From assembly GCA_015061915.1 (NCBI GenBank), contig SUVR01000018.1, forward strand, positions 1 through 38,238: a stretch of DNA of 38,238 nt. The letters run 5' to 3'. The translations under genes were made by a program, and so were the position numbers. Below are positions 1 to 38,238 of the stretch, in pieces; position 1 is the first letter of the stretch; each line of letters starts with the position of its first letter. Origin of the DNA: Lentisphaerota bacterium (GTDB lineage: Bacteria; Verrucomicrobiota; Lentisphaeria; Victivallales; UBA1829). A model generated the notes under the pieces. The model searched no databases. It had not been told where the DNA came from and worked only from the letters and a program-made list of their open reading frames with translations.

Positions 1-3000
1 CGTCCGTCACCAGACCGCCCTTCACGATCATATTGCGGAGGGTCGTCTTCGCCGACACATTGAACACACGGAAGGCGCTGACGGTCTTGGTGTTGTCCGC
101 CAGAGATTCCGCATAAGTCACGGGGACTTTGATGGTGATGATGCCCTGTGCAAATGTGCCGAACATCAGAGAGCCGTCGATCGTGACCGCAGTTGTGAGG
201 CTGAGTTGACCGAGGTAGTTGCCCGCTGCATCTGTTCCATCCAGCGTGATGGTCTTATCCGTGGTGCTCCAGTCGATCTGATCAGAGAAGGTAATGGTAT
301 TGCCGAGAGTCGGATCTGCTTTCTGATAGGCGATCGCTTCCCGGAGGGAGATCAAGCCGTCGAACTCATCCACCACATCCTCCGTTGTATTGACAACGAG
401 GGAAGGAACTTCAAAGAGTTTATCCATTGCGCCGACCAGATACTTGCCGTTTTCACCGGGGGTACGGGTATTGCCCAGCTGGTCCGTTTCCGGATTGGCG
501 GTCGTGGCGATCTGCAGAATATCCCGCGCCGGCAGGTAGAGTTCCACGACGCCGTTTCCGTAGTTCTTATTGAACCGGACCGTGTAATCCGCAGACGCCT
601 TGCCGTTGAAGATCAGACCGTAATCCGTGGAGCCGGAAGCGATCTGCGTGGTGGAGGAATCCACTTTGAAGTTGGTGCTGACAATCGTTGCAGTTCCGAT
701 AACCGAGTTATAAATCGCGCCCTTCAACTGCTTCGGCGTATTATGGACCAATTTTTCATAGTAGTCATCGCTGACTTTACTGCCTTCTTCACCGGAGGTA
801 TTCCCAAGGATCAGAGAATTGTAAACATTCATCTTGTAGGTATAGGAACCATTGCTCACGGAAGAGTAGAAAAGCAGACCGCCACCATATTCGGTTGCCG
901 TGTTTCCGGCAATCGTTACCTGACGGATCGTAACATCCGCATTGTGATACATTCTTGTAGAAAATTCAATAGCACCGCCCCGTGCAGCACTGTTGCCATA
1001 GAATGTGGAAGAATAAACATTCAAACGGGCATCATCACCACCTCCTCTGTAATGGATGGCACCGCCGCCATAATCTGCGCTGTTATTGATAAACACAGAA
1101 TCCTTGACTGTAAGTTTCGCTCTGTTTGCAATGGCACCGCCACTGGCGGCAGACGAGTTACTGTCAAAAAGACTATCTTCCACCGTAACCGTTCCGCCCT
1201 GAATACTGACTGCCCCCCCCTGACCGATGGATGCATGTGCTCCGGTTGCTTTATTTTCTGTGAATGTGCTGTTCAGCAGAGTAACAGTCCCGGACCGGAC
1301 ATTGATCGCACCGCCGCCGCCGCAATAGCCATCACTCGTGGAGATCGTCGCGGACTCGTTTTTCGTAAATGTGGAGTCCTGAATAGTGACCGTACCGCCG
1401 TAGATATAGACAGCACCGCCGCCACTGCCGGAACCGCCGTCAGCCAACACCTTGTTTTCGGTGAATGTGGCATCCGTGATCGTACCGGTACTGGTATAGA
1501 TACCGAGACCGCCACCGCCATTATTGCCCCATGTATCAGCAAGGGTATTTTTGCTGAACAGAACATTTGTGACAGTAAAGTTCGCGTCAATAAAGGTCAC
1601 TGCGCCACTGCTTTTTCCGTTAGACCATGCAGCTGCGGAAGTATTGGCGATAAAATTCGTAGCGGTAATGGTAACCGTACCGCCGTTCACATACAGCGCA
1701 CCGGCTCCGGCCCCCTTGTGGGTCGCTTTGTTCGCTTCAAACACGGTATCTGTGATCACGGTAGTGGAGCCGAACACAGCAACTGCACCGCCATGGGTCA
1801 CATTGGCATTATAATTTCTTGCCTGGTTACCCGTGAAATACATCTTTTCCAGCGTCAGCTCACCGCTCTTCATGTAAACCGCACCGCCGCCCAGTTTATC
1901 GTTGTTCACGTACCCGTACTGCATGGTCATATTCTTCAGCGTGAGGGAAGAATTGCCCGCATGGATAATGCGGTAACGGTCCTTGTCAGAATCAACAGCA
2001 ATGGTGCTGTTCTTTCTGCCGTCAAGGATCACCTTGTTGTTGGTGCCGTCAGCGTCCGTATCCTTGCCGTCGCCGGAGCCGTCGATGGTCACATTGACCT
2101 GACCGGAGAGGGAGTAGCCCTTGCCGGAGGACATATAGATCGTAACATCGCCGTTCTCAAAGAGGTTGACTTCGTTATTGACGCCGTTTGCAAAGACAAT
2201 GTTGTATTTTGTGCCGACCGTTGTGCAGAAGGCGAGCGCTTCCCGCAGGGTGGTGGTCAGCAGGCTGGTATTTGCCGTATCCGTGGCATCGTTGACCACG
2301 AGGGTGATGGTCTCCGGTGAACGGTAGGTACCCGCGAAGAAGGTGGGTTCCGCTTTCGCCTTGAGGGTTTCCACCATCACCGCCTTCATATCGTTATCCA
2401 TATAGACCGTGGCGCCCTCGCCCAGACCGTATCCGGCGGCATCCACGTTGAACGCCGCAGTCACGGAGCTGTCCGCCAGAGAGATCCAGTTTGCAGCATC
2501 GCCGGTGGCGTTTTTGCCGAAGACATAGAACGCGCCCGTGGAATCTTTGCCGACCAGCACGCCGTTTTTCCCGGCGGCGGAGGTGGCGATCACCCGGGGC
2601 AGACCATCGACCACTTCCAGCGTGTCGGCGAAGGTGGCGTTGTTGATGCCGCCCGTCACATTGAAGTTGGCTGTTACGGAGTAGTCCGCATCCGTCACGG
2701 AGTAGTACAGGTTTGCCTTACCGGCGGTGATCTGGATCGCTGCGCCGGTGTTGTCCGTTCCCTTGAGGACCACGGTATTGATGAGGTTCATGACCGCGCT
2801 ATCCTTGGCGACCTTGATCTGGGAATCTGCCGCATCGCCGTTATCTGCCACAATACAGTCGATCAGTGTCACGGTATTGTTGGCTCCGGCGAGTTCAAAC
2901 GCAGGACCGGAGTTGTTTCCGTAGAATACCGAGTTCACAAAGGTCGCTGTACTGCCGCCGTGGCTGCGATAGACCGAAGCATTGCTGCCGGTATTGCCGG

Positions 3001-6000
3001 TGAATACGCTGTTGTAAACATTCAGTGTACCGCTGCCCTGATAGAACACACCGCCGTTGGATGCGGAGTTTCCGGTAAATTCAGAATCATAAATGTTCAG
3101 CGTACCTCTACCGACATAAATCGCTGCGCCGCCGTTTCCGGCTTTGTTCCCCGTGAAGAGAACATTCCGGATCGTGACACCGCCATTGGTGTTCGCCTTG
3201 ACCGCACCGCCGCTGGTACTCAAATTACCGCCGGTAATGATCATATCCTGCAGGGTGATCGTGCCATTATCGAAGACCATAAGCTGATAGGTTCCCGGTC
3301 CGGCAATGGTCACACGGTCCGTGCCGATGGAGCCATCGATCACCAGCGTGATGGAAGCGCTGCTCAGCGTTGTACCGTACACATCGGAGAGAGCGACCCG
3401 GTAGCTGTCCATGACCGTATCGCCGTCCGAGTCGTAGTTGGCAGTGAGGCTCTGGCTGAAGGTGATGGTATAGACGCCATTCACCGCCAGCGACGCGGTC
3501 TTGTTGTTCGCCGCTGCAAAGGCTTCACGGAAGGAGATGACACCGTCCGTATCGTTCACCACATCATCCAGCGTGGTGACGGTGAGGGAGGCTGCTTCTT
3601 TGATGGAGAGGTCTGCCCCTACGAAGGTGAAGTCATAGTTGGCGCTCTTGTCATCGGCGCCGTTGGTGATCGTATAGCCGTCTGCGAGCGTGATCGCATA
3701 AACACCTGCCGCCGTACCTTCCGCACGGACCAGCGTTCCGGTGAAGACATCGCCGTTCTTCAGACCGTCCACCGTGTACGTCAGTTCCGGTTCAGCGCCG
3801 CCGACAGTGATGCTCTTGGCGTCCGCCGTGACCGTGAGGGTGGCTTTGCCGATGACCAGATCGGAGTCTGCGGGCAGAGTCAGTTCAAAGTCATCCGTCA
3901 CATCCACATAATTTTCGCCGTCCTTTTCAAAAACGGCTACGCTGTCGATGGAAATGACATCTTCATACGTGCCGACGTTGAGAGTGCCGTCTTCGGCAAC
4001 CGTGCCGTTTGTCTTCCAGACAAGGTCCAGATAGTAGGTCTTTTCCACGCCGTCAACAGTGACCGTGATCTCTTTCTTGGTCTCGGTCAGCACGAGGGCA
4101 TCGCCGTACGTATTCGTTACCGAGTAGCCGTCCACCGTCAGAGCGATAGGCTGTTTCGGCAGGAAGTTGAAGGCATACGCACCGACCTGGAAGATCTCCT
4201 GCGGTTTTTCCTGCAGTTTCAGCGCATAGAGACGGTCCACACGGTCTCCGTTCTCATCCACATTCTGAGCGTCTTCAAAGATATGATAGGTCTTGAAGGC
4301 AGCATTGGTTGCCGTGTCGAACTTGGCAATATGTTCCTGAACGCCGGTCTGCAAGCCGTAAGAGCCGTCGGTGCTGGTCAGGCTGAAAGGCACGACCACG
4401 GTTGGATCACTGACGCAGATCCAGTTGTCGTTTGCCATATCCAGATAGTAATACTGGGTACGGGTCCCGTGCAAACCGCTGTTTGTCGTTGTCCGGGCGA
4501 TGAGCGTACCGCTCTGGGCTGCCAGACCGCCTCTGTTCAGGGCAAAGACTTCATGATCCACGCCGTTCACGGTCTGAACCGTGGCGACCGCCTTTCCGTC
4601 CGCGACCGTTTCAAAGATATCGGAGAGTGTTTGCGTTGAAGAATCATATTTCTGTCCGCCGGTGACTGTCAGGTTTGCAAAGTCGGCAGGCACCTGAACG
4701 GAGCCATATACGCTGTTGATCAGTGAGATTTTTGTGTTCGCATTACCATTCGCAATATCATTGCTGCTGTTGCCGGCAACGATGGAGTTCAGCACAATGA
4801 TCGTATCAGAAACGCTCCCATCGGAATAACCGATCGCACCGTTGTTGGTCGATACGGTCGTGTTGCCGGTGATCGTGCTGTTGATCAGATAGGCATTTGA
4901 GGTACGCAGCAGGATCGCCCCACCACTGTTTGCACGGTTGTCCGCAATCGTTGAGTTGAGCAGATGCACGTAGCCGCCGTTTGAAAAAATTGCACCGCCA
5001 AGCCCGTTATTCCAGTTCCGGACAAAAGTGGAGTCACTGATATAAGCTGTCCCGCGTGTATAGAACGCTCCGCCCTGTGTGTATGCGCCTGTCCCCACAT
5101 TCTGTTCAAACAAACTGCCGGTGATGTTTGTTGTTCCGCTTCCATTTACAAGCGCTGCACCGCCATTATAGCTGCCGCTGCTGACATTGTAACGGAAGAT
5201 GGAGTTGTTGACATTCAGCGTTCCGGAATCCGCATGAACACCGCCGGCAAAACTTCCAGCCAAGCCGTTCTGCAGAATCAGGTCATTCAGCGTTACTTTG
5301 TTGCTGCCGTGCAGATTCATGATCTGGACGCCGGTTCCCGTGTGGGAAGCATAAGAGCCATCCGCATTGAACGTAACCGTGTTTCCACCGTCCAGGATCA
5401 CTTTGCCGCTTGCGATGGCACCGTTGATGATCAGGCTGTACGTCTTGAACGCATCCGTCGCAACATTCAGCGTGCTGCCGACGGTGATCTTGGTGACGGT
5501 ATCCGCAAAGTTGATCGTGTAAGTCTTCGCCGTGGCATCGAAACCGGAGGTAAAGACGCTTGCCGCACCGCCCTTGACGGCAGCGGCATCATCCGCCGCA
5601 TACTGCAGGGCTTCCCGGAGAGAAGTCAGACCGTCAAAGGGATTGAGGATATCCTGATCGGTGTTCACGGTCAGGCTGGGCGTTTCCGCCGGGAGAGCGT
5701 GCGCACCCGCAGTAAAGACGCCGACTTTCGCTCCATCCAGACGGGAGACCGCGTTGCCTTCCGCATCCACGTTCTGCGCCGTGGTATAGATCGTAGCATC
5801 TGCGCCCAGACCGTAACCGGTGTCTGCATCCAGCGCAAATGCCGCCTTTTCCGTGCCGTCAAGCGCGAACCACTTGCCATTATCCATATAGTAGTACGCG
5901 CCGTCCAGCTGACCGACCAGAGCGCCTGCGTAAGCTGCGGCGCTGTCCGCCTTGATCTCAAGGGTGTTGTCTGCGGTCAGGGTGGTGGAGGTGAAGATGT

Positions 6001-9000
6001 CAGCGGCATCAGCGCCGACCACGCTGTTGATGTTGTTCAGCGTGCCATTGACCGTACCGCAAACGATGGAGTTGATCGCATTGAAGGTACCGCCGGTAAT
6101 TTCCACGGAGGATGTGGTTTCGGTGGAGTACATAGTGGAGTTGACCAGATTGACCGTACCGCCGGTGACCTGGAAGCCGTTGCCCACACGCCCGAGGTTG
6201 TTGTAGAAGGTGGAGTTGATCACATCGACCGTACCGGCGGAAACGTAAATCGCGCCACCGCCGGAATCCGGAGCCTGACCATCGTTCCAGCCGTTGGTTG
6301 CGCCGTTTCCGGAGAACAGGCTGTTTTTGATGATGAGGCTTGTACCGGCAAAGTTGATGGCTCCGCCGTTGGAAGAGCCCCAGCCGCTTGCGCTGTTGTT
6401 GTTGAAGTGCGTGTTTTCGATGGAGATCGTGGTTCCAGTCGCGCCATAGATGGCACCGCCGCCCTGAATTGCGCCGGTATTCGAGTCGAAGACTGCATTT
6501 TTGATCGTACCGGAAGTGTTGGCGGCGAAGTAGATCCCGCCGCCGTGGGTACCGGCAAGGTTCCGCGCGATGGTGGTTTTGGTCTCCGCAGAGGTGGTCG
6601 GATCGATGTACGAATCCACCGTGAGGGTACCGGACTTCACCACGACCCCGCCGCCGTTGTTGTTGCTGAAGCTTCCGTTCGCCTTGTTGTCCGTAATCTG
6701 CACGCCATAAAGGGCGAGTGAGGTACCGTTGGCATAGATGGCACCGATATCCGCCCATTGTGTTGTGGACGTGCTGCCCACGATGGAGCTGTTGGTAATG
6801 ACCATGGCGCCACCAGCCTGATAGATCGTCATACCATGCGCACCGCTGTTGCCTTCGCCTTCGGTTGTACTGCCGAAGATGGAGTTGGAGATTGTGGTAT
6901 CGGCAGCGGTATGGAGCGCACCGCCATCACCCACAGCGGAGTTGCCCTTGAAGGTGGAGCCGGTGATGGATGTTTCACCCGCCGCGATATAAACCGCACC
7001 GCCCTGTGTGGCTGCACTGTTGTCCGTGAAGGTGTTGTCCGCCAGCACATTCGTTCCGGAGGTATTGGAGAGGTAAATCGCGCCGCCGTTACCGGTGGCA
7101 GTGTTGTCCGTGAAGGTGTTGTTCGTGATCGTTGCGGATCCGTTTGCGAGGGCAAGATAAATAGCACCGCCACTGGTCCCGGTGGAATTGCCGGAGAAGG
7201 TGGAGTCCGTAACCGTCATAGAACCGCTCTTGGAGAAGTTTGCATAGATGGCACCGCCGCCGACCGGATTGGTGGCTTTGGTCACCTGATTTCCGGTAAA
7301 TTCAGAACCGCTGATGATGAGCTTACCGGCACCACTGTAATAAACTGCACCACCGGCAGAGTAATCCTTGGTATTACCGGTACTGATGTTGTTTTCAAAG
7401 GTGCTGTCCGTGATCGAAAGTGTACCATTTCCGTTATACTTGACCACACCGCCATAAGTGCCGGTACTGGTATTGCCGGTGAAAGTACAGTCATTCACAG
7501 TGAGCAGACCGGAGATCGATGCCTGAATTGCAGCGGCATATGTGTGACTGTTGTTACTGAAAGTCGTACCCTTGATCGTCTGCGTACCGGAGGAATATGC
7601 CAGATGGACCCCATGCATCGTATTACCGGAGATGGTACTGTCCGTAATGGTCAACCCGGTACCGCTTGTAGACATAACGACACCGCTCTTTGTTCCGGAA
7701 ACATGGTTCTGGAAAGTACTGTTTACAACATTCAGTCCGGCTTTCACAATATGAATTGCAGAACCGCCGTCATAAACAGATTTTGCAGAGGTATTGACAT
7801 AATTTCCGGTAAAGGAGCTGTTTTCCACCGTAACATCTGCAATGGCAAAGATGGCACCGCCACCGAGGTACCATGCGGTCTTGGTTGTATCTTTGTAGCT
7901 GTTGTTCTCGAAGGTGGAGTTCTTCACGGTCAAAGCAGCTTCCGCAAAAATGGCACCACCGCCACCGTAAAGTTGATCGTTCGCATTGGTACGAAGATCA
8001 CCTTCCATATAACCGTTGCGGAAGATGAGACCGTCGATGGTGGTTGCAGCACCAACTTCCATGACGCGGATCGTATTGCCGCCGTTGAGAACGATCTTTG
8101 CGCCGGTGGTGTTGCTGATGGTGACTGCATCCGTGACCAACAGTGTGGTGGCGAGATCGATCACATATTCCGTGGTGGTATCCGTGAACACCGTGCTGTC
8201 AAAGGTGATGGTCTGGGCGCCTTCGGTCTTATTGGCGTAAGCGAGTGCTTCGTGGAGACTGGTCAGACCGTCAAAGGGATTGAGGATATCCTGATCGGTG
8301 TTCACGGTCAGGCTGGGCGTTTCCGCACTCAACGCATACGCACCGGCGTTGAAAATCATGCTGTCTGCGCCGATCAGACGGGAGACTGCATTGCCTTCCG
8401 TATCCTCGTTCTGCGCCGTGGTGTAAACCACCGTGCCGGACGCCGTGCCCAGACCGTAGTTCGTGGCAGCATCCGTGGTGAACGCCACATCAACCATCGT
8501 TCCGGTGCCGTCATCGACCTGATACACAGTGCCATCTGCATTGTGCCAGACGCCGTCCCTGACGAAGTAATAGGCGTTGCCGATCCTGCCGACCAGAACG
8601 CCGGCGGTGGTGGCTGCACCATCCTTGCTGATGGCGAGGGTATGCACACCATTCTCCACATCCAGCACCGGGGTCTGTGCGCCGAACAGTTCGGCATAAG
8701 TTCCGGTAACATTGGAGGCATCGACAGTGACAGTCATGGCATCGCTGTATTTTCCGCCGGTGATATTATGGAAGAGATAAGTTTTGGGTGCGGCGACATC
8801 AATATCGTACGCCGTTCCATAATAGGTCTTACCGGCTTCACCAACGCCATCCATGACGGCATCATTCGCAAAAATATTATTGGCGATAAAGATGCTCTTT
8901 GTCACGGTAGAAGCGCTGTAAACGCTGGCAAATGCCGTATTCGTGCTGACATTTCCTGCAAATGTGTTGTCAAAGACCGCAACCGAAGAGCCCTCATTTG

Positions 9001-12000
9001 CGCCGGTGATATTCACGATCGCAGAAATATTGCCGTAGTTTCCGGCGACCGTACTGTTATAAACAGCCTGGGTAATGCTGGTATTGCCAGTTCCATGATC
9101 GAACTGGAAAACACTGCCCGTAATATTATTGTCGGTCACCGTCATGTTATACAACGATGCTGCACCGTGACAACGGAACACATGGGACTTAAATGTGTTA
9201 TCATAAATCACAAAGTTGGAGGCATAAATCGGTTCGCCGCGGTGTGAAAAGAACACATGGGGGATCGTATTGCCCGTAATCGTAAAGTTCCGGTAAGTTA
9301 CATTTGCACCGTTATCATGGTGTTCGATCAATCCATGATCGTTATCACCTGTGTTACCGGTAAAGGTAATGCCATCAAGCACATGTTTTCCATTACCGCG
9401 AACCTTGACGCTGATACCATAGTTATCCCGGAAGGTGCTGTTTGTGACCGTTGCAACTCCGCTGGTGAGCCACAGGGCGGCTCCGCCATTGTTGTTGTTT
9501 CCATGCATTGAATGGTTGCTACGGGCAAATGTTACATGATCTGCATTCAAATTCCCTGCATCCACACAGATAATACTGCCGGATATGTTGTCATATCTGG
9601 TTGAGGAACCGAGGTCAAGTTCCCCGGTGCTGTCATTACTGCCGCTGCCGTAGAGCGTGATATTCTTCAGGGTAAGCGTACCGCCATTGACGTGGAAGAG
9701 GCGTCTGTTTTTTCCGAGGAGCGAGATATCAATGATCAAACCGGTATCCTGACCGTCGATAGTATAACTGACCCCGGATGCCACAATAAATGCCGTGTTT
9801 GATGAACCTTCATCCAGTGAGGTCACATCAATCCGGATGGAACCATCGGTCAGGGTGCGATAGGCATACTTACCGGTCGCTGCCTTGATGGCATCCAGAT
9901 CAAAGGTAATGACTGTTTCGCCGTTGGCATCCCGGTAACCGTCCTTGAGATACTGGATCGCTTCCCGCAGGGAGATCAGTTCATCGTAGGGGTCCACGAT
10001 ATCCGCAGCGATCGTAACCGTCAGACTGCCGGCTTCTTTCAGAGCGGAGTACGCCCCGGCGACCGCTTTGCCGTCAATCACCACACGGGTATTGCCCAGA
10101 CCGTCCGTCTTGATGATGTATGCGTCATCCACGGTTGCGGCGGAGTCATCGGCAAAGTTCTTCCAGTTGACTTTATCCGTGCTGTAATAAAGGTTGGTTC
10201 CGTTCATGGCGGTGTAAACGCCGTTCACATGGGGAGCGGTACTGTTGGGGGTTGCCTGAAGAGCGGTGAGGATGAGACCATCCCAAACCAGTTCCGTGCC
10301 GAAGACATCATCTGCGCTGACACTGTATGTATTGGTCGCAGCCGTTCCCGTCCCATCGAACACGGAATATTTTGCCGTGTAACCGGAGAGATTTTCCGTA
10401 CCGAAGACAAGGGAGTTGAGGATGTTCAGTTTATCGTTGCCGGTGATGGTGCCGCTGTTGCCGTAAAGGGTGCTGTTCACAATCTGACCGATGCCGTTCG
10501 CGGCGTCGATGGTGATGGTGCCGCCGAAGTTATAGACCGTGCTGTTGAGGATGGTCAGTACGCCGTTGGTGACGGCAAGATCGCCCTCGCCCGTAAGGAG
10601 CGCATTTTCGATCGTCATGCTTCCGGCAGTAAGAGTGGCATCACCGGTGAATTTCATACCATCAACCGTGACCGCATCCGTTGCGCTGTCCAGAATCAGA
10701 TTGATCTTGAGTTCGCTGTCCGGATTGTAGCCGTGCAGGATGAGGGAGCCGTTGACATTGACCGCCACATCCCCGAAGTCCTGCATCGTGGGAGCAAAGA
10801 AGTATTCACCGGACCCGCTTTCCAGCTGGTTCTTGGCATCGGCGATGGTGGACCAGTGGGTAATGGTCCCGTCATCCGCCTTGCTCCACATGAGGGCGGG
10901 CTTGTATTGGGCAGCCCCGGCAGTGGAGTACGGCACACGGGCACCGCCGGTCTGATCCGCCATATAAATATTCAGCAGCTCACCAGTGTACGCAACGCCC
11001 TTGGCATCATTCCAGGAAAGACCACCGTCAACACTGTAACAGATCAACTGTCCGTAAGTCCCGCTCTGATAGGTACCGAGCTGGAATCCATTCCGGTTGA
11101 CGGCGGTATTCAGGGTTTCATCCGTCAGTTCATTCACTTGCAGCAGACCATTGCTGTCCACCACATACTTGTCTGCGACTTTGGGAGCAAAAAGTGCAGA
11201 TGCCAAAGCGGCATAATCTGCATCCACATAATCCATGCCACCGATCTTGGTCACACCGGCACCAACACTGTAAATATTGGCAACGCTGTTTAAGATACCG
11301 TTTCTGCTGTAAATGTCATGTGCAACGATACTGCCGTTGCTCTCAAGAGTGTTGTCCGCAATAATATTGTGGATAAGAAAAACATCCTGACCGGGACCAT
11401 TATTGTTGTCCAAACGATATGCTTGGCCCTTATAAATGCCGGCACCACCGAAGTACGCTGTCTCGGTAGAAGAAGTATCTTCATCACCGATGGTCTTGCC
11501 GGTTGTGGTCAGGCGGTTGCCGACCACGGTTGAATCAGAGAGGTACAGATCCGCCCGTTCGGCAATTGCAATAGCGCCGCCGCTGTAACCGGCAGAGTTG
11601 TTGATAATCGTCAATCCATGGAGATTTGCGGTAAATCCCTGATCGTTATATGTTGCCGTCAGGTGAATCGCACCGCCGGTCTTTGTGGCTGTGTTTCCAT
11701 CAAAGAGCGAATTGGTAAACTCAATATAAGACTTCTTGTCAGCATGAAGCAGGAGCGCGCCCCCGTGCTCAGCAGAGTTATCTTTGAATGTGAGATTTTC
11801 ACCATGGATCAGGAATGTCGTAGAACTGCTACCGAAACTGATGTTACCATTATTGCCACCATTGTGAAAATTTTTGCGGACTGCAATCGCACCACCCGCA
11901 GCAGCTGTTGAGTTCCCGGTAAAGGTATTGTTCAGGATCTGCACCGAGGTCGTTGCAGCAGAATTATCCATACTGGAGATAAAAATTGCACCGCCGCCAT

Positions 12001-13834
12001 GATTATTCCGAACTGTACCATCGGCATGGTTTCCGGTGAAGATGGAGTTGGAAATTGTCACATCGGCCTGATAGCCGCCATGATAAATCGCACCACCGGC
12101 AGCACGGGAACTGTTATCCGTAAAGGTATTGTCATCCAGCAGGGCTGTCATTTTACCGACCAGCGAGAGCGCTCCGCCGGATGCTCCCCGGTTGCCGGTA
12201 AACTGAGAACCGGTGATCGTGATTTCTGCATGAGCAGTTTTACTGGCATTGTAGTAGGCGAAAGCACCGCCGCTGATCCCGGCATCCCCGTTTGCGCCGG
12301 TTCCCTTGTTGTTCTCAAACACGGAATCCGTAATGGTGACTTTTGCATTGGTCACGCCGCTGACAAAAATCGCACCGCCATTCGAGTGGGTCGTAGTGCC
12401 TTTGATAATGTTATTGGAAATCGTGGAACCGGAAACATTCAACTCAAAATCGGCAACGGATGAAACAAAAACAACAGCACCGGTCCAGGTTGAGGTATTG
12501 CCGTTGAATACAGAGTCAATAATATTGACTTCTGCGCCGGTCTTTTCGATAAAGATCGTTGCCCCGTTGCGCGTGTTGGTGCTGTTCTCAATTCTGGAAT
12601 CGATCACATTCAGGGTAATCCCGTTTGCTTTCAGGTTGATCGCACCGCCGTCGGAATCTGCAGTATAGTTGGAATTTGTCAGGATCAAGCCGTTGATCGT
12701 GAATTCCATATCTACCGTGGTCAGGTCGAAGAAGTAGCCCTTCTGGTCGGCATCCACGGTCACATCCGCTGTACCATCGCCGTCGATGTCGCCGTTGATG
12801 ATCATGGACTTGGTGATATTGCCGATCGTGGACGAGAGGGTAATGGTCTCGCCGGAGAGGGATTCCGCAAAGGTGATGGTGTTTTCGCCGTTCAGCGTGC
12901 CGTTCTGGTTCAGGTAGGCGATCGCTTCCCGGAGAGAGGTCAACTCGTCTGCGTCATCCATCACATCCAAAGCCGTTGTTACGACCAGACTTGGCGTTTC
13001 AGACTCAAGACAGTACTGATAGGAAACGGGGTTGATGGTGGCGGCTTCGATGAGACCGGAACGGTATTCCAGATCCCAGTCGCCGTTGGCGCCGGTGGAG
13101 TCAATGGAGGCGGCAACGTCTGCGCCCGTCAGGTTGGCGATGGTCTGGACAAGGGCCTTGCCTTCTTCGGACTTGGCGGTATCGCAGCCGTAAACAAGGA
13201 TGTCGGCGTCATCGGTCAGGTGTTCCCCGATGGCTTTCCAGTCGGCGGGATTGATCGTGGTGGAGTCGATCTTTTCGCCGTTCAGTGTAATGTAACCTTC
13301 GGAACCGTGGGACACGAGGTGGATGGCGGAATATTTGGTGTCTGCGTGTTCGTCAAGGTAGTCGTTGATCGCATCAAGGGCGTCGGTGCCGGAAGTGAGG
13401 CGGAGGACTTCCACGTTGTCGCCCAGGTCGTTTACGATGCTGTCCGCATCGGCAACGGAGGAGTTCAGCACAACAAGGATCCGTTCCGAAGTTTCGGAGG
13501 CGGCGATGGGGGCATCGGTGAAGGCGACTGTCTCAGACTCGGGATCGGCTGCGGCAAAGTCGGCGGCATCCGCGTCTGCGGTGTCGGCGGCGTTGTCGCT
13601 GCCCGACATTTCCGGCGGCACCGGCATTTCTGCCAGATGATCCGGAGTCAGCTCATTAGATGCAGTCTGATTGTTGTCAGACTGCATCTCTGCCGCGGCA
13701 GAACCGTCGCCCGCTGCGTCATTGTTCGCCTGATCTGCTGCTGCCGCTTCGGCTGCCTGTACCACTGCTCCCGCTTCAAAGAGCACACGATCTTCCAGCT
13801 TGAAGATCTCCACCTTGTTCCGCTTCTTACCCAT
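1..13834 (-). CDS. Giant modular surface protein with DUF4347 head and seven beta-helix modules (C-terminus outside window)
   Basis: The minus-strand frame stays open from the ATG at 13834 to the window edge, at least 4611 codons. Seven module landmarks checked along it (SLREA-type motifs) are all in the same frame. The start follows AAAGGTGG at good spacing. There is no classical signal peptide; a LEDRVLFEA motif (residues 13-21) resembles the LEPR-XLL-type N-terminal motif of very large secreted proteins. Residues about 118-265 match DUF4347 (SHG at 175-177, YGCD around 217). Seven modules follow, each opening with a 'SLxVxT-D-...-SLREA' motif near residues 303, 1291, 1862, 2741, 3437, 3865 and 4499. 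Each continues with many short GGAIY/ITxSTFTxNT coils typical of right-handed beta-helix and polymorphic outer-membrane (Pmp-like) proteins. Residues about 3222-3409 look like MBG domains. It is probably exported and surface-bound or released. Substrate and function are unknown, and the C-terminal anchoring or secretion signal is not visible. Confidence 0.9.
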   Translation of the reverse strand, partial: MGKKRNKVEIFKLEDRVLFEAGAVVQAAEAAAADQANNDAAGDGSAAAEMQSDNNQTASNELTPDHLAEMPVPPEMSGSDNAADTADADAADFAAADPESETVAFTDAPIAASETSERILVVLNSSVADADSIVNDLGDNVEVLRLTSGTDALDAINDYLDEHADTKYSAIHLVSHGSEGYITLNGEKIDSTTINPADWKAIGEHLTDDADILVYGCDTAKSEEGKALVQTIANLTGADVAASIDSTGANGDWDLEYRSGLIEAATINPVSYQYCLESETPSLVVTTALDVMDDADELTSLREAIAYLNQNGTLNGENTITFAESLSGETITLSSTIGNITKSMIINGDIDGDGTADVTVDADQKGYFFDLTTVDMEFTINGLILTNSNYTADSDGGAINLKANGITLNVIDSRIENSTNTRNGATIFIEKTGAEVNIIDSVFNGNTSTWTGAVVFVSSVADFELNVSGSTISNNIIKGTTTHSNGGAIFVSGVTNAKVTITDSVFENNKGTGANGDAGISGGAFAYYNASKTAHAEITITGSQFTGNRGASGGALSLVGKMTALLDDNTFTDNSSRAAGGAIYHGGYQADVTISNSIFTGNHADGTVRNNHGGGAIFISSMDNSAATTSVQILNNTFTGNSTAAAGGAIAVRKNFHNGGNNGNISFGSSSTTFLIHGENLTFKDNSAEHGGALLLHADKKSYIEFTNSLFDGNTATKTGGAIHLTATYNDQGFTANLHGLTIINNSAGYSGGAIAIAERADLYLSDSTVVGNRLTTTGKTIGDEDTSSTETAYFGGAGIYKGQAYRLDNNNGPGQDVFLIHNIIADNTLESNGSIVAHDIYSRNGILNSVANIYSVGAGVTKIGGMDYVDADYAALASALFAPKVADKYVVDSNGLLQVNELTDETLNTAVNRNGFQLGTYQSGTYGQLICYSVDGGLSWNDAKGVAYTGELLNIYMADQTGGARVPYSTAGAAQYKPALMWSKADDGTITHWSTIADAKNQLESGSGEYFFAPTMQDFGDVAVNVNGSLILHGYNPDSELKINLILDSATDAVTVDGMKFTGDATLTAGSMTIENALLTGEGDLAVTNGVLTILNSTVYNFGGTITIDAANGIGQIVNSTLYGNSGTITGNDKLNILNSLVFGTENLSGYTAKYSVFDGTGTAATNTYSVSADDVFGTELVWDGLILTALQATPNSTAPHVNGVYTAMNGTNLYYSTDKVNWKNFADDSAATVDDAYIIKTDGLGNTRVVIDGKAVAGAYSALKEAGSLTVTIAADIVDPYDELISLREAIQYLKDGYRDANGETVITFDLDAIKAATGKYAYRTLTDGSIRIDVTSLDEGSSNTAFIVASGVSYTIDGQDTGLIIDISLLGKNRRLFHVNGGTLTLKNITLYGSGSNDSTGELDLGSSTRYDNISGSIICVDAGNLNADHVTFARSNHSMHGNNNNGGAALWLTSGVATVTNSTFRDNYGISVKVRGNGKHVLDGITFTGNTGDNDHGLIEHHDNGANVTYRNFTITGNTIPHVFFSHRGEPIYASNFVIYDNTFKSHVFRCHGAASLYNMTVTDNNITGSVFQFDHGTGNTSITQAVYNSTVAGNYGNISAIVNITGANEGSSVAVFDNTFAGNVSTNTAFASVYSASTVTKSIFIANNIFANDAVMDGVGEAGKTYYGTAYDIDVAAPKTYLFHNITGGKYSDAMTVTVDASNVTGTYAELFGAQTPVLDVENGVHTLAISKDGAATTAGVLVGRIGNAYYFVRDGVWHNADGTVYQVDDGTGTMVDVAFTTDAATNYGLGTASGTVVYTTAQNEDTEGNAVSRLIGADSMIFNAGAYALSAETPSLTVNTDQDILNPFDGLTSLHEALAYANKTEGAQTITFDSTVFTDTTTEYVIDLATTLLVTDAVTISNTTGAKIVLNGGNTIRVMEVGAATTIDGLIFRNGYMEGDLRTNANDQLYGGGGAIFAEAALTVKNSTFENNSYKDTTKTAWYLGGGAIFAIADVTVENSSFTGNYVNTSAKSVYDGGSAIHIVKAGLNVVNSTFQNHVSGTKSGVVMSTSGTGLTITDSTISGNTMHGVHLAYSSGTQTIKGTTFSNNSHTYAAAIQASISGLLTVNDCTFTGNTSTGTYGGVVKYNGNGTLSITDSTFENNISTGNTKDYSAGGAVYYSGAGKLIISGSEFTGNQVTKATNPVGGGAIYANFSKSGSMTVTDSTFSGNSTGTSGGAIYLALANGSATITNNTFTDNTATGNGGAIYLSNTSGTNVLADNTFTDNSAATQGGAVYIAAGETSITGSTFKGNSAVGDGGALHTAADTTISNSIFGSTTEGEGNSGAHGMTIYQAGGAMVITNSSIVGSTSTTQWADIGAIYANGTSLALYGVQITDNKANGSFSNNNGGGVVVKSGTLTVDSYIDPTTSAETKTTIARNLAGTHGGGIYFAANTSGTIKNAVFDSNTGAIQGGGAIYGATGTTISIENTHFNNNSASGWGSSNGGAINFAGTSLIIKNSLFSGNGATNGWNDGQAPDSGGGAIYVSAGTVDVINSTFYNNLGRVGNGFQVTGGTVNLVNSTMYSTETTSSVEITGGTFNAINSIVCGTVNGTLNNINSVVGADAADIFTSTTLTADNTLEIKADSAAAYAGALVGQLDGAYYYMDNGKWFALDGTEKAAFALDADTGYGLGADATIYTTAQNVDAEGNAVSRLDGAKVGVFTAGAHALPAETPSLTVNTDQDILNPFDGLTSLREALQYAADDAAAVKGGAASVFTSGFDATAKTYTINFADTVTKITVGSTLNVATDAFKTYSLIINGAIASGKVILDGGNTVTFNADGSYASHTGTGVQIMNLHGSNKVTLNDLILQNGLAGSFAGGVHADSGTLNVNNSIFRYNVSSGSYNGGAALVNGSGTTNITGSLFEQNVGTGAYTQGGAFYTRGTAYISDSTFVRNWNNGLGGAIFSNGGYVHLLNSTIADNRANSGGAILLRTSNAYLINSTITGNTTVSTNNGAIGYSDGSVSDTIIVLNSIVAGNSSNDIANGNANTKISLINSVYGSVQVPADFANLTVTGGQKYDSSTQTLSDIFETVADGKAVATVQTVNGVDHEVFALNRGGLAAQSGTLIARTTTNSGLHGTRTQYYYLDMANDNWICVSDPTVVVPFSLTSTDGSYGLQTGVQEHIAKFDTATNAAFKTYHIFEDAQNVDENGDRVDRLYALKLQEKPQEIFQVGAYAFNFLPKQPIALTVDGYSVTNTYGDALVLTETKKEITVTVDGVEKTYYLDLVWKTNGTVAEDGTLNVGTYEDVISIDSVAVFEKDGENYVDVTDDFELTLPADSDLVIGKATLTVTADAKSITVGGAEPELTYTVDGLKNGDVFTGTLVRAEGTAAGVYAITLADGYTITNGADDKSANYDFTFVGADLSIKEAASLTVTTLDDVVNDTDGVISFREAFAAANNKTASLAVNGVYTITFSQSLTANYDSDGDTVMDSYRVALSDVYGTTLSSASITLVIDGSIGTDRVTIAGPGTYQLMVFDNGTITLQDMIITGGNLSTSGGAVKANTNGGVTIRNVLFTGNKAGNGGAAIYVGRGTLNIYDSEFTGNSASNGGVFYQGSGTLNVYNSVFTGNTGSNASVYRSHGGSTATFVNSVFYGNNSGPAFELAGANNTVTLIDCIVADNGDAADSQIKVAKDSAVMNLINTVVLKGTDNTGAAIQITAGKANLYYSVTDADYSVTANFNVTGGINNATFADTLEVVDGLPRVIATSAAGKNGVLVGKDSTGAFYVFGKNATGDAANWISLADSSVTAAFNVDAAGYGLGEGATVYMDNDMKAVMVETLKAKAEPTFFAGTYRSPETITLVVNDATDTANTSLLTTTLREALAFCTTVGTKYNIVFANGVNNEVNLFENGDVTIYMSSGKGYSLSGQVNVTIDGSGDGKDTDADGTNNKVILDGRKNSTIAVDSDKDRYRIIHAGNSSLTLKNMTMQYGYVNNDKLGGGAVYMKSGELTLEKMYFTGNQARNYNANVTHGGAVAVFGSTTVITDTVFEANKATHKGAGAGALYVNGGTVTITATNFIANTSAAAWSNGKSSGAVTFIDANFTVTNVLFSKNTLADTWGNNGGGGLGIYTSTGTITDATFTENKVLADGGSGSGGGAVYIYGGTVTIQDSTFTKNESATISTSDGYCGGGGAINVRSGTVTLLNSTFTENKATGAHASIGQGGAVSIQGGTVTVEDSLFDSNSSAASGGAIANRAKLTVKDSVFINNSADYGGGAIHYRGGGDDARLNVYSSTFYGNSAARGGAIEFSTRMYHNADVTIRQVTIAGNTATEYGGGLLFYSSVSNGSYTYKMNVYNSLILGNTSGEEGSKVSDDYYEKLVHNTPKQLKGAIYNSVIGTATIVSTNFKVDSSTTQIASGSTDYGLIFNGKASADYTVRFNKNYGNGVVELYLPARDILQIATTANPETDQLGNTRTPGENGKYLVGAMDKLFEVPSLVVNTTEDVVDEFDGLISLREAIAYQKADPTLGNTITFSDQIDWSTTDKTITLDGTDAAGNYLGQLSLTTAVTIDGSLMFGTFAQGIITIKVPVTYAESLADNTKTVSAFRVFNVSAKTTLRNMIVKGGLVTD
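5625..5689. repeat. 65-bp perfect direct repeat, copy 1 (inside giant gene)
   Basis: This 65-base stretch is identical, base for base, to 8262-8326. It encodes the module-opening segment with SLTVNTDQDILNPFDG. The two copies are 2637 bp apart, which is 879 codons, so recombination between them would keep the reading frame. Confidence 0.95.
8262..8326. repeat. 65-bp perfect direct repeat, copy 2 (inside giant gene)
   Basis: This is the second copy of the stretch at 5625-5689 and lies in the same reading frame. Flanking DNA is similar but not identical: both copies are preceded in the protein by a related 'AQN-D-EGNAVSRL' segment. Confidence 0.95.
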
Positions 13835-13894
13835 GTTTTCCACCTTTCGCCCGCAGGCATTAAGTTATTATAATATTCTTACTTATACTTAAAT

Positions 13895-13923
13895 ATTATA
13901 CTATATACCCAATAGAAAGTCAA
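13895..13923 (-). promoter_or_regulatory. Sigma-70-type promoter of the giant gene
   Basis: On the minus strand TTGACT (13918-13923) and TATAAT (13895-13900) are separated by 17 bases. The expected start near 13888 leaves a leader of about 50 bases before the AAAGGTGG ribosome site. The promoter lies just after the terminator of the upstream RTX gene, so the giant gene appears to be its own unit. Confidence 0.8.
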
Positions 13924-14032: not shown

Positions 14033-17014
14033 TCAAACGGTTACAAGGATCGAGTCACTGTCCCGCTCTTCAAAAATCTTTTTCGTACTTTCATCCAGAA
14101 ACGCGCCACACTGTTCCAATGCGGAATAAGTTGTGCTGCCGTCATCTCCGAACTTCAGGTTCACCTGAGAGGCTCCGCTGACTTTCACCGTATTTCCGCC
14201 ATCGGAATACATCCTGTTCACTTCATCCCAGTTTTCAACAGAACCGCTTTCAAACCATAGTGTTACAGTTCCACCCGCAAGCTGTTCCACCGTATCGGCG
14301 CCCCAGTTTTCACTGAAGAGAAAAAGATCATCGCCTCCGCCGCCATGCAGGCTGTCATCTCCGCTGCCGCCGGCGATCCAATCGTTTCCGGCAGCCCCGA
14401 TGATCCGGTCATTACCGTCATCTCCGAACAGATGATTTTCGCCGTGATTCGCCCAGATCGTGTCGTTTCCGCTTCCGCCCCGCACGGTCAGATTGTCACC
14501 GGCGTACGCAAAGCGCTGACTGGTCAGGTCCACCAGGTCATCCCCCTCCCCTGCACGGATCTCGTTCAGGTTTGCGAGACGGGAATTTTCCAGTGCATAA
14601 TCCTGAAACGAACCGCCGAAAATGTCGTCCACAAAGAGCGCATCCCCATTTGCCGTATCAGTCAGATAAAGGATCGCCGCATCATTTTCCGCTCCATTGA
14701 AAACATCTTCGATCCTGTTCTTTCCGAACAAGTTGACTTTTTCACCGGTACCGCTCCAACCGTCTTTACATCCCAGATGCTGTGCCGAATAAGAAGCACT
14801 CCACACCTGCTCCGTGTTCCGGACAAAAAAGATGTCGGCGCTGTTGTCATCCGCAGCGGCAATGATCCGTTTTTCTCCACCCTCATCCGTCAGAGTCCCA
14901 CACTCCCCGATCATCTGATCCACCGCATCTTTAGCGGTCTGATACAGCGTTTTCTCCGGCAGACTGCAGGTTGTCAGGGAAGTGACATTCACCGGCTTGA
15001 TCCGGACAGCAAAACTGTCATCTTTTTTAAGTGAATATTCAATATATGCAGTATTTTCCGGAACGGTAAGAGTATGCTGCGCAACAGCAGTTTCCCCGAT
15101 CGTGAGAACCAGAGCGCCGGATTGATCCACGGAAAGCGCATATTTCTTTCCGGCAGACACCGCCGAAACGCTGATCCGATCCAACACCTTTCCGGCTTCA
15201 TCCTGAACGGTGAAAACCACATCCGCAAACGATTCATCAAACGCTCTAGCCACCCGATAAGAACCGTTCGCCTGATCCGCCTTTACCGAAATTGCGTATG
15301 AACCGCTATCTGAAAAGTAAGCAAGATCATTCACCATCGCCTGATCCGCCGCCGTCCGGTCCGTCAGATCAAACAGGACCGTTCCGGTATTTTCCACTGC
15401 AGCGGAGAAGCTGTTTGTGCCGGAAAGGGTCAACTCACCGCTGTTGCAAACGGTATCGGTCACAGTGGTGAATGTGGAATTTTTCAGTGTCATTTTGTAC
15501 TCATTGAAAATGGCACCGCCGCTGACCGTTGCCGTGTTTCCCGTGAAGGTACAGCCGGAAACGGTCATAACTTCGCAGCCGTTGTTATCGTTCCAGATCG
15601 CACCGCCGCTGACCGTCGCCGTATTCCCCATAAAAATGCAGCCGCTGATGGTCACAGCAGGTCCGGACCAGCTGTTGGAGATCGCACCGCCGTATGCCGC
15701 CGAGTTCCTTGTAAAAAGGGTATTTTCCACTTCGCCGCCATTCCAGAGCGCGATTGCTCCGCCGTCGTTGACAGCAGTATTTTCCGTGAATGTGCCGCCG
15801 CTGACAACCAGTTGCCCGAACACGTTGACAACCGCCCCGCCTGCGTACGAGGCAGTGTTTCCGGTAAAGTCGGAATCCGTGATCGTGACCAGATCCGTTG
15901 CTGCACCGGACTGATAGACCGCACCGCCGTTTTCTGCGCTGTTCTGCTCAAATGTCGAACCGGTGATCTCCGCCGTTGCAGATCCGCTTTCCCCGAAATT
16001 GATCCAGTTGGCAATAGCGCCGCCATTCTTTGCCGTATTGCCGGTAAAGGTGCAGTCTGCTACCGCAAGAACGCCTCTGATCGTGTTGGCAACAGCGCCG
16101 CCGAATCCTTTATCAGTGTTCCAGCCTTCCGGCAGATTGACGGTGTTTCCGGTAAAAGTCGAGCCGGAGATCTGCAGTTCCGCATAATTGTAAACCGCCC
16201 CGCCGAGATCCGCTGTGTTCTGTTCAAAAGAGGAATTTTCAATGGTGAGATCCGCCGATGCGCCACCGTAGGTATCGTTATAAACCGCACCGCCGTGAGC
16301 TGCGGTATTTTTGGTAAAGGTGCTGCCTTTTACGGTCGCCGTCACACCGCCGTGCATTTCCAGCGCACCGCCGCCGATCCGTGCGATATTTTCCGTAAAC
16401 TCCGTTCCGGTGATAGAAAGCGTACCGCCCCATTGCTGAAGCGCTCCGCCGTATGCGGCTTCGTTTTTATGGAACAGACCGCCATTCACCGTCACCGACG
16501 CCCCGTTCATGGTACAGATAGCACCACCGGCAGCAGTTTCGCCGCCTGCAGTGTTGGCGTTGAACACACTGTCCGTGATCGAAAGGACGCCGCCGTAAAC
16601 TTCAATGGCACCGCCGAGACCGTTGTAACCGTTCAGCGCTTCAGCTGCATTTTTTTCAAAAAGCGCTTCGGTCAGAGTAATATTTGCGTTTGTTGCGCAG
16701 ATCGCGGCGCCATACCAGCCGGTATTGTTCCGGGCAATGCCGCCCCCTTGATAAACTCCGCCGGTATAATTGGAGGCTGCCGACCCGCCGAGGACCAGAG
16801 CGCCGATCTCTCCTTCTTTATCCACAAGGATCGTTCCGCCACTCTCAATGGTCAACCCGCTGACGGCAGCACCGCCGCCGACTTTCACCGTGTTATACGT
16901 TTCGTTCGGGATCTTCACATTCTCCAGTGTTGTCACCGTACTGACCAGAGTTTCATCCAGCCACAGCGTGATCTTACCGGCTTCAAATTCATTTTCTTCT
17001 TTGACGACTGCCAT
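14033..17014 (-). CDS. Secreted beta-helix protein with C-terminal RTX repeats
   Basis: The 993-residue protein has two parts. Residues about 85-540 are a tandem array of beta-helix coils of the GGAIxN...STFTxNTA type, the same style as the giant protein downstream. Residues about 844-900 carry RTX calcium-binding nonapeptides (GGSGNDTI, GDDGNDRI, GAAGNDWI, GGSGDDSL, GGGGDDLF), and a further 93 residues follow. RTX repeats near the C-terminus usually mark type I secretion substrates, and no N-terminal signal peptide is visible, which agrees. No type I exporter genes are in the window. The ATG at 17014 follows AAGGA at 8 bases. The last residues (DSILVTV) form a hydrophobic tail as in many type I substrates. 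The role, perhaps adhesion or matrix, is inferred only from architecture. Confidence 0.88.
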   Translation of the reverse strand: MAVVKEENEFEAGKITLWLDETLVSTVTTLENVKIPNETYNTVKVGGGAAVSGLTIESGGTILVDKEGEIGALVLGGSAASNYTGGVYQGGGIARNNTGWYGAAICATNANITLTEALFEKNAAEALNGYNGLGGAIEVYGGVLSITDSVFNANTAGGETAAGGAICTMNGASVTVNGGLFHKNEAAYGGALQQWGGTLSITGTEFTENIARIGGGALEMHGGVTATVKGSTFTKNTAAHGGAVYNDTYGGASADLTIENSSFEQNTADLGGAVYNYAELQISGSTFTGNTVNLPEGWNTDKGFGGAVANTIRGVLAVADCTFTGNTAKNGGAIANWINFGESGSATAEITGSTFEQNSAENGGAVYQSGAATDLVTITDSDFTGNTASYAGGAVVNVFGQLVVSGGTFTENTAVNDGGAIALWNGGEVENTLFTRNSAAYGGAISNSWSGPAVTISGCIFMGNTATVSGGAIWNDNNGCEVMTVSGCTFTGNTATVSGGAIFNEYKMTLKNSTFTTVTDTVCNSGELTLSGTNSFSAAVENTGTVLFDLTDRTAADQAMVNDLAYFSDSGSYAISVKADQANGSYRVARAFDESFADVVFTVQDEAGKVLDRISVSAVSAGKKYALSVDQSGALVLTIGETAVAQHTLTVPENTAYIEYSLKKDDSFAVRIKPVNVTSLTTCSLPEKTLYQTAKDAVDQMIGECGTLTDEGGEKRIIAAADDNSADIFFVRNTEQVWSASYSAQHLGCKDGWSGTGEKVNLFGKNRIEDVFNGAENDAAILYLTDTANGDALFVDDIFGGSFQDYALENSRLANLNEIRAGEGDDLVDLTSQRFAYAGDNLTVRGGSGNDTIWANHGENHLFGDDGNDRIIGAAGNDWIAGGSGDDSLHGGGGDDLFLFSENWGADTVEQLAGGTVTLWFESGSVENWDEVNRMYSDGGNTVKVSGASQVNLKFGDDGSTTYSALEQCGAFLDESTKKIFEERDSDSILVTV

Positions 17015-27981: not shown

Positions 27982-28007
27982 CGTTATTTTTCCTTCTCTT
28001 TCAGGGA

Positions 28008-29405: not shown

Positions 29406-29506
29406 TTGTTTTCTCCGGAAAAAATTGGTTTTCGTTTGTTGTGTTGTTAAAGAAACGGTGAGCTTATCAGGCTCAATTAAATATTCCTGTCCTTTCATTT
29501 CATCCG

Positions 29507-34647: not shown

Positions 34648-34664
34648 GGTTCACACTCCTTCAA

Positions 34665-35378: not shown

Positions 35379-35421
35379 AATGTTCTCCTTGGTTGTTGTT
35401 TTCTTCCAATAACACAACGCA

Positions 35422-35450
35422 ATTATAGCACAGTTTATTGCTTTTTGCAA
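35422..35450 (-). promoter_or_regulatory. Promoter of the tandem secreted paralogues
   Basis: Minus strand: TTGCAA (35445-35450), 17 bases, TATAAT (35422-35427). A start near 35415 gives a leader of about 37 bases. Confidence 0.8.
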
Positions 35451-38087: not shown

Positions 38088-38113
38088 CAGGACGGACAGA
38101 TTCTTTTTTCTCA

Positions 38114-38217
38114 GAGCCAATTTCAAAACGTTTTGGCTCATCTTGTTAAAAAGTTGATTTTTTCAGCGTCAAACCAATTTTGACGCATCGGCTGTGATTT
38201 TTTCTTGAAAAAGTCAC
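38114..38217. repeat. Three consecutive inverted repeats upstream of the response regulator
   Basis: The three are GAGCCAA...TTGGCTC (38114-38139), GCGTCAAA...TTTGACGC (38166-38186) and GTGATTTTTTC TT GAAAAAGTCAC (38194-38217, one G-U pair). None has a clean T tract after it on the minus strand. No gene is seen in this part; the window ends 21 bases later, so their full context is unknown. Confidence 0.6.
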
Positions 38218-38238
38218 GAAAAATCATGTTTCAGGGCG

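What the first reader, a model, noticed from the sequence alone, without database searches (positions are those of the whole stretch)
1..13834. Giant modular surface protein with seven beta-helix modules, at least 4611 residues
One uninterrupted frame of over 13.8 kb joins a LEDRVLFEA head motif, a DUF4347 domain, seven modules that each open with a SLREA-type motif, and an MBG-like insert. Module lengths vary (about 430-990 residues), which suggests growth by duplication. It is a major investment for the cell and its ligand is unknown.
Basis: partly seen in the sequence, partly recalled or inferred. Interest (0 to 1): 0.75.

Follow-up and report, generated by a model that had tools for sequence, protein, structure and literature searches.

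The report
Giant beta-helix protein with dedicated exporter
A gut bacterium related to Victivallis makes very large rod-like secreted proteins of 4,600 to over 16,000 amino acids; every surveyed relative that carries this kind of protein also carries an export machine with a built-in membrane protease, which gives a testable answer to how such giants leave the cell.

Summary
One minus-strand frame (ATG at 13834, promoter-like and ribosome sites) stays open for 4,611 codons to the contig edge, so the C-terminus is missing. It has a LEDRVLFEA head, a DUF4347 domain, seven SLREA-headed modules (the seventh cut off) and one MBG domain. The modelled module is a right-handed beta-helix. DUF4347 models as a caspase-like (clan CD) cysteine-protease fold with a conserved His/Cys pair; its best structural match is the Pseudomonas effector Tce1.

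The genome (a Victivallales MAG) has four such heads, including a complete 16,206-codon frame and a 6,391-codon one joined across two contigs. Relatives share the head and mostly an acidic-hydrophobic tail (FKDDFDkALxxLL), with a variable middle; the ends are under the strongest purifying selection.

The main new result is the likely exporter. DUF4347 giants on proteobacterial plasmids sit beside TolC, two HlyD-type adaptors and an M50-protease/HlyD fusion, with no ATPase gene. That fusion occurs in 22/22 DUF4347-positive genomes against 5/39 negative ones; classical type I secretion shows no association (12/22 against 22/39). The window's genome has all four parts, unlinked to the giants. Ligand, energy source and cleavage sites are unknown.

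The parts
2..13834 (-). Giant gene, 4,611 codons, runs off the contig at base 1
13895..13923 (-). Promoter-like site TTGACT-17-TATAAT
   Evidence: 11 of 12 matches; consensus match only, and the region as a whole has no excess of such sites over shuffles (3 found, 2.8 expected)
13840..13847 (-). Ribosome-binding site AAAGGTGG
   Evidence: read
13772..13798 (-). Head motif LEDRVLFEA (residues 13-21), no Sec-type hydrophobic core
   Evidence: conserved in all Victivallales giants opened and as LE[PQA]R..FD[AG]A in proteobacterial ones
13478..13771 (-). Ala/Asp-rich variable linker, residues 22-119
   Evidence: fast-evolving between paralogs
13037..13477 (-). DUF4347 domain, residues 120-266, caspase-like fold
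13307..13309 (-). His176, predicted catalytic (SHG motif)
   Evidence: 24 of 27 domains, excluding the degenerate upstream copies
13184..13186 (-). Cys217, predicted catalytic (YGC motif)
   Evidence: 27 of 27 domains
10064..13027 (-). Module 1, residues 270-1257
8351..10063 (-). Module 2, residues 1258-1828
5714..8350 (-). Module 3, residues 1829-2707, densest in GGA[ILV]/FxxN repeats
3626..5713 (-). Module 4, residues 2708-3403
3608..3838 (-). MBG_2 domain, residues 3333-3409
   Evidence: E 3.9e-14
2342..3625 (-). Module 5, residues 3404-3831
440..2341 (-). Module 6, residues 3832-4465; modelled as right-handed beta-helix
2..439 (-). Module 7 (incomplete), residues 4466-4611

Best explanation
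This is a secreted giant rod protein of Victivallales. A short N-terminal LExRxLF[ED]A head and, to judge from complete relatives, a short acidic-hydrophobic C-terminal tail are constant parts; between them sits a variable stack of right-handed beta-helix modules. It is most likely exported by an uncharacterised envelope-spanning system made of a TolC-type outer-membrane channel, two HlyD-type adaptors and an inner-membrane fusion of an M50 intramembrane metalloprotease with an HlyD arm, encoded in this genome at C14:44744-49208 and C9:184858-186456. The M50 part probably handles or clips the head. The DUF4347 domain is a caspase-like cysteine protease that probably cuts its own polypeptide near the N-terminus or a close partner, to mature or release the rod. 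The rod then binds a surface or polysaccharide in the gut. Shown: anatomy, fold predictions, conserved ends, co-occurrence and gene linkage of the exporter. Inferred: direction of export, proteolysis, site of action. My estimates: exporter pairing 0.75; caspase-like fold 0.9; active protease 0.65; self-cleavage 0.35; adhesion or glycan binding 0.5.
For: Anatomy and profiles. DUF4347 fold: AlphaFold core pLDDT 80-95; best PDB match 9qpe_G, Tce1, Z 14.3 over 148 residues, rmsd 2.8, then CHAT, C11, caspases, legumain, MARTX and TcdB cysteine-protease domains; a profile of 24 DUF4347 domains finds 9qpe_G, which the PDB names 'DUF4347 domain-containing protein', at E 0.003 over the His-to-Cys stretch. 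Tce1's His186/Cys240 match the TcdB dyad (PMC13323088). Beta-helix. Constant ends: tail pattern in 10 of 13 complete giants and 0 hits in 64,280 interior residues; dN/dS between sister giants G003 and G011 is 0.14-0.18 at the head, 0.26-0.51 in the middle, 0.065 at the tail. Exporter: TolC, RND-type adaptor, HlyD and M50-HlyD genes beside DUF4347 giants in Kosakonia, Azospirillum, Variovorax, Caballeronia and Tistrella and beside Victivallales giants; M50-HlyD in 22/22 DUF4347-positive against 5/39 negative genomes, Fisher p 3.6e-12, genus level 15/15 against 2/15; it co-varies inside genera g13 and g26; HExxH in all nine proteins read; own copies found.
Against: In the window's own genome the exporter genes are not beside any giant. 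Three of ten plasmid loci opened show no exporter within the flank (Phaeobacter, Qingshengfaniella, Indioceanicola); G054 has the M50 fusion without DUF4347. No ATPase or other energy source was found in the operon. The window protein's own tail is missing. His is replaced in 3 of 27 DUF4347 domains. The Foldseek list also contains Rossmann and flavodoxin folds with long rmsd. Genomes in the survey are related, so the p-values overstate independence, and four of the 22 positives helped build the profile (18/18 without them).
Confidence: 0.55

Rival explanations
1. A classical type I secretion (HlyB/HlyD/TolC) adhesin: the acidic-hydrophobic tail is the C-terminal T1SS signal and the genome's HlyB-like/HlyD pair at C7 exports it.
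For: The genome has a HlyB-like ABC protein and HlyD (C7:289-4393). There is no Sec-like signal. Tails end in acidic then hydrophobic residues.
Against: No association with DUF4347 over 61 genomes (12/22 against 22/39, p 0.66). Ten DUF4347-positive genomes lack the HlyD; the same ten also lack a full-length HlyB-type ABC, among them G011, whose giant is over 80% identical to that of T1SS-positive G003.
Confidence: 0.15
2. A chlamydial Pmp-like autotransporter: GGA[ILV]/FxxN beta-helix passenger moved by its own C-terminal barrel.
For: Chlam_PMP repeats and pertactin/Vag8-like helix.
Against: Complete paralogs and relatives end in the short tail, and Pfam finds no autotransporter barrel at their C-termini. 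No Sec signal.
Confidence: 0.05
3. DUF4347 is not a working protease here but a folded spacer or binding domain, as in the degenerate upstream copies of tandem DUF4347 proteins.
For: All five upstream tandem copies read show loss of the His, the Cys or both. Tce1 activity itself is only putative (PMC13323088).
Against: In the other copies Cys is 27/27 and His 24/27 conserved, with dN/dS 0.10 between the C22 and C23 domains.
Confidence: 0.3
4. The rod is an enzyme array acting on gut glycans, since beta-helices of this shape also occur in epimerases, polysaccharide lyases and tailspikes.
For: AlgE4, AlgG, PL6 lyases and tailspikes score Z 22-26.
Against: No Pfam glycan-active domain in the protein; the beta-helix fold is shared by inert adhesins.
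Confidence: 0.15

Closest known systems
DUF4347 (PF14252) giant repeat proteins of Proteobacteria (Kosakonia, Azospirillum, Variovorax)
   Same: LExR..FD[AG]A head, DUF4347 near the N-terminus, giant repetitive body; TolC/HlyD/M50-HlyD genes next door in most loci opened
   Different: Middle made of Ig-like or cadherin-like domains in those whose domains were read or annotated, rather than beta-helix; different C-terminal tail; exporter linked to the gene
Tce1 (PA0256), T6SS effector of Pseudomonas aeruginosa
   Same: DUF4347 fold and His/Cys dyad (PMC13323088; PMC8262886 for the DUF4347 label)
   Different: 310-residue T6SS cargo, not part of a giant secreted rod
Chlamydial polymorphic membrane proteins (Pmp)
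   Same: GGA[ILV] and FxxN beta-helix repeats
   Different: No autotransporter barrel in complete paralogs, no Sec signal, caspase-like head domain, far larger
Clan CD self-processing domains of MARTX and large clostridial toxins
   Same: Fold class and His/Cys order (Z 6.6-6.9)
   Different: N-terminal position, no toxin domain found, activator unknown
LapA-type T1SS adhesins with LapG protease
   Same: Giant adhesin-like protein without Sec signal, TolC channel, a cysteine protease linked to the N-terminal part (analogy, from general knowledge)
   Different: No ABC transporter in the associated operon; protease domain is part of the protein itself
Giant proteins of PVC bacteria (Omnitrophota, Lentisphaerae; PMC11573180, PMC12057145)
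   Same: Size class and superphylum; Lentisphaerae already listed as rich in huge proteins
   Different: Those reports give no common head, tail or exporter in the passages read

Membership tests
DUF4347 (PF14252) | Match to the Pfam model above its cut-off | tested here: met
   133.5 bits against a cut-off of 24.6
Clan CD (caspase-like) cysteine peptidases | Caspase-like alpha/beta fold | tested here: met
   Predicted model; Z 14.3 to Tce1, 9.5 to SAVED-CHAT, about 7 to caspases, legumain and C11; prediction, not structure
Clan CD (caspase-like) cysteine peptidases | His then Cys dyad at strand ends | tested here: met
   His176 and Cys217; Cys 27/27, His 24/27 in the family
Clan CD (caspase-like) cysteine peptidases | Peptidase activity | not testable with these tools
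   Needs protein
CSLREA / parallel beta-helix module proteins | CSLREA-type module start and right-handed beta-helix | tested here: met
   TIGR04214 26.1 bits against 25; module 6 model
LEPR-8K / LEPR-XLL head (NF012209) | Match to the NCBIfam head model | tested here: inconclusive
   No match, but the model rang in no control either; not matched by the Kosakonia LEPR protein either
Chlamydial Pmp autotransporters | GGA[ILV]/FxxN repeats | tested here: met
   Chlam_PMP E 7.6e-13
Chlamydial Pmp autotransporters | C-terminal autotransporter barrel | tested here: not met
   Absent from complete paralogs and relatives; the window protein's own end is missing
Classical T1SS substrates | Presence of HlyB/HlyD tracks the substrate | tested here: not met
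   12/22 against 22/39; ten positive genomes lack it
Substrates of the TolC/HlyD/M50-HlyD exporter | Exporter present wherever the substrate is | tested here: met
   22/22 genomes; own parts at C14 and C9
Substrates of the TolC/HlyD/M50-HlyD exporter | Exporter genes beside the substrate gene | tested here: inconclusive
   12 of 13 DUF4347-M50 pairs that share a contig in relatives lie within 18 kb, but not so in the window's genome
Substrates of the TolC/HlyD/M50-HlyD exporter | Secretion depends on the exporter | not testable with these tools
   Needs a deletion experiment

The most novel reading that the evidence does not exclude
The TolC/HlyD/M50-HlyD set is a separate envelope-spanning secretion system without an ABC ATPase, dedicated to giant proteins with an LExRxxF[DE]A head and a caspase-like DUF4347 domain, shared by Proteobacteria and Victivallales; an intramembrane metalloprotease takes the place of, or gates, the usual inner-membrane transporter.
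Probability: 0.4. Interest if true: 0.85.

Novelty: new variant of a known kind. Interest (0 to 1): 0.62.

Why it matters
Giant proteins are common in PVC bacteria, but how they leave the cell and what their uncharacterised domains do is open. This links one large class of them to a specific, deletable set of genes, assigns a likely enzyme class to DUF4347, and defines constant ends by which such proteins can be recognised in fragmented genomes. If right, it makes giant-protein export testable in a tractable, non-pathogenic relative such as Azospirillum brasilense.

Tried and rejected
1) Extending the gene: the first 127 bases of the window match no other contig of the assembly, so the C-terminus cannot be recovered here. 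Tails on contigs C11 and C12, identical over 127 bp, and the tail variant on C10 are candidate ends, but none can be assigned. 2) T1SS as exporter: considered first and dropped after the survey. 3) A second ABC plus HlyD-like pair (own C10:159678-162741): present in all ten DUF4347-positive genomes of the window's family and missing from the 13 genomes of genus g6, but not associated outside that family. 4) Window secretin pair (26200-29498): homologs share a contig with a giant's 3' end in G004, but none were found around the other giants opened; treated as unrelated. 5) LEPR-8K model: no match, uninformative. 6) PDB sequence search with the single DUF4347 sequence found nothing; the 24-sequence profile did, together with designed TIM barrels that are chance repeat hits. 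7) Phage records: no DUF4347 match. 8) Literature: no held paper found that describes the M50-HlyD system or characterises DUF4347 giants; subscription journals and preprints are not covered. 9) My first read of the C23 gene as complete was wrong: it runs to the contig end and is completed by C6.

Full report
Observation. The window is one whole contig (C22) of a 31-contig, 2.49 Mb, 97% complete genome. On its minus strand a frame runs from ATG 13834 to base 2 without a stop: 4,611 residues. A promoter-like TTGACT-17-TATAAT at 13923-13895 (11 of 12) and AAAGGTGG 5 bases before the ATG support the start, although promoter-like sites are not in excess over shuffles in that region as a whole. No tandem arrays and no long near-identical repeats lie inside. 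The finding is confirmed; the C-terminus is missing.

Anatomy. Residues 13-21 read LEDRVLFEA, followed by an Ala/Asp-rich linker, DUF4347 at 120-266 (E 8e-39), and seven SLREA-type motifs at 300, 1288, 1859, 2738, 3434, 3862 and 4496. Pfam adds six Beta_helix stretches, chlamydial PMP repeats and one MBG_2 domain at 3333-3409; NCBIfam adds CSLREA and para_beta_helix. Module 6, aligned with its sister modules, gives a right-handed beta-helix (core residues about 125-515, pLDDT up to 97) whose best structural neighbours are Vag8 (Z 27.8), pertactin (26.9) and the AlgE4 epimerase module (26.5). The N-terminus has no Sec-type hydrophobic core by a simple hydropathy test.

Modules. Cores are 25-45% identical to each other; the nearest relatives of modules 1, 3 and 7 are in the C23 giant (39, 42 and 61%). 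Only border DNA is nearly identical (83 bp at 93% between modules 3 and 4). So duplication is old, and exchange between genes is likely.

Family. The genome has four DUF4347 proteins: a complete 16,206-codon frame on C15; a 6,365-codon frame on C23 that is completed by 26 codons on C6 through a 123-base overlap; the window gene; and a C18 gene whose frame ends after 1,154 codons next to a sequence present, inverted, at both ends of C18, probably an insertion element. Relatives are Victivallales; the nearest named hit is an uncultured Victivallis MAG at 57%. DUF4347 occurs in 22 of 61 genomes surveyed, with frames up to 4,550 codons outside the window's genome.

Constant ends. All Victivallales giants opened share the head (LE[DEK]R[VI]LF[DE]). 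Complete ones usually end in a tail such as RAEIFKDDFDKALDRLLALNV: a simple pattern finds it in the last 40 residues of 10 of 13 and never in 64,280 interior residues (the pattern was written from these tails, so this shows placement, not an independent test). Three contig ends (C6, C11, C12) carry this tail, identical at the DNA level over 127 bp, and C10 carries a variant. Between the sister giants of G003 and G011, dN/dS is 0.14-0.18 over the head and DUF4347, 0.26-0.51 in the middle and 0.065 at the tail: the whole frame is under purifying selection, most of all its ends.

DUF4347. The AlphaFold model (five sequences, core pLDDT 80-95) has a strand-helix alternation with His at the end of one central strand and Cys at the end of the next. 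The best PDB match is Tce1, a Pseudomonas effector (9qpe_G, Z 14.3, rmsd 2.8 over 148 residues), followed by CHAT proteases, C11, caspases, legumain and toxin cysteine-protease domains. A 24-sequence profile finds the same chain at E 0.003, and the PDB calls it a DUF4347 domain-containing protein. The Tce1 paper aligns its His186/Cys240 with the TcdB dyad and calls it a putative protease; activity was not shown (PMC13323088). Cys is kept in 27 of 27 domains and His in 24 of 27, while the extra upstream copies in tandem DUF4347 proteins have lost one or both. A caspase-like fold is therefore well supported; activity and target are not.

Export. The first candidate, classical type I secretion, is present in this genome (C7:289-4393), but over 61 genomes it shows no association with DUF4347 (12 of 22 against 22 of 39), and ten positive genomes lack both HlyB-type ABC and HlyD. 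Looking outside the order, DUF4347 giants on plasmids of Kosakonia, Azospirillum, Variovorax, Caballeronia and Tistrella sit beside genes for TolC, an RND-type adaptor, HlyD and a roughly 700-residue fusion of an M50 metalloprotease with an HlyD arm, with no ATPase gene in the operon (TolC was not found in the Tistrella flank, and the A. thermophilum locus is cut before the last two genes). The same genes flank many Victivallales giants, often TolC - giant - TolC. A profile of the M50-HlyD protein finds it in all 22 DUF4347-positive genomes and 5 of 39 negative ones (Fisher p 3.6e-12; genus level 15/15 against 2/15, p 8.8e-7). Four of the five exceptions are 56-80% complete MAGs, and one of them, G001, carries the giant tail. 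Within genera g13 and g26 the two traits come and go together. Four positives were used to build the profile; without them the count is 18/18. The window's genome encodes the adaptor, HlyD and M50-HlyD at C14:44744-49208 and one TolC of this type at C9:184840-186567, away from the giants, so one exporter would serve several. HExxH is kept in all nine M50-HlyD proteins read. Its M50 half is nearest to the daptide intramembrane metalloprotease model, below that model's cut-off.

Mechanism, with status. Shown by sequence: anatomy, fold predictions, constant ends, co-occurrence and linkage. Inferred: the head and/or tail is the export signal; the M50 part recognises or clips the head; the chain leaves through TolC; DUF4347 then cuts itself or a neighbour; the beta-helix rod binds a surface or glycan. 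The energy source is unknown.

Known or new. Huge proteins in Lentisphaerae are known in outline (PMC11573180), and DUF4347 and PMP-like repeats are known families. I found no held paper that joins DUF4347 giants to an M50-HlyD exporter, but the library lacks most subscription journals and preprints. I rate it a new variant of a known kind, with a categorically new secretion system as the most novel reading not excluded.

Noticed in passing
window 14033-17014 (-): Upstream neighbour of 993 residues with PMP repeats and RTX calcium-binding nonapeptides, without the LEDR head; a better candidate for the genome's classical T1SS.
   Followed up: partly
L008-L010 (contig C15:9516-58133): Complete 16,206-codon frame with the same head, DUF4347 and tail; most of its middle matches no Pfam family.
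   Followed up: partly
L005:1-127 and the end of L061 (contig C18 ends): The same 123-bp sequence, inverted, lies at both contig ends and reads like the start of a transposase; the C18 giant's frame ends beside it, so that copy looks interrupted.
   Followed up: partly
window 38112-38238: The contig end shares about 127 bp with the starts of contigs C23 and C15, probably an insertion-element end where the assembly broke.
   Followed up: no
window 26200-29498 (-): Two adjacent secretin-type genes, related to each other; the homologous pair in G004 lies about 2 kb from an HlyB/HlyD pair on a contig that also carries a giant's 3' end.
   Followed up: partly
window 33940-35450 (-): Two adjacent small exported-looking proteins 47% identical to each other, sharing EDA[FY]DLYAP near the start, with no Pfam match.
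   Followed up: no
L092, L093, L095 (ends of contigs C11, C12, C6): Three copies of the giant tail identical over 127 bp of DNA, which suggests gene conversion of 3' ends or recent duplication.
   Followed up: partly
L125-L126 (G052 C9): A DUF4347 giant gene appears as two overlapping long frames (3,400 and 1,782 codons), by frameshift or assembly error.
   Followed up: no
L160 and L140 (Variovorax plasmid CP063167.1:19413-68132): A tandem-95 repeat protein of about 16,240 residues with the same head type and the full TolC/RND-adaptor/HlyD/M50 set behind it.
   Followed up: partly
L137 (Phaeobacter plasmid): A DUF4347 protein that starts directly with the domain, lacks the LExR head and has no exporter genes nearby, consistent with head and exporter going together.
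   Followed up: no
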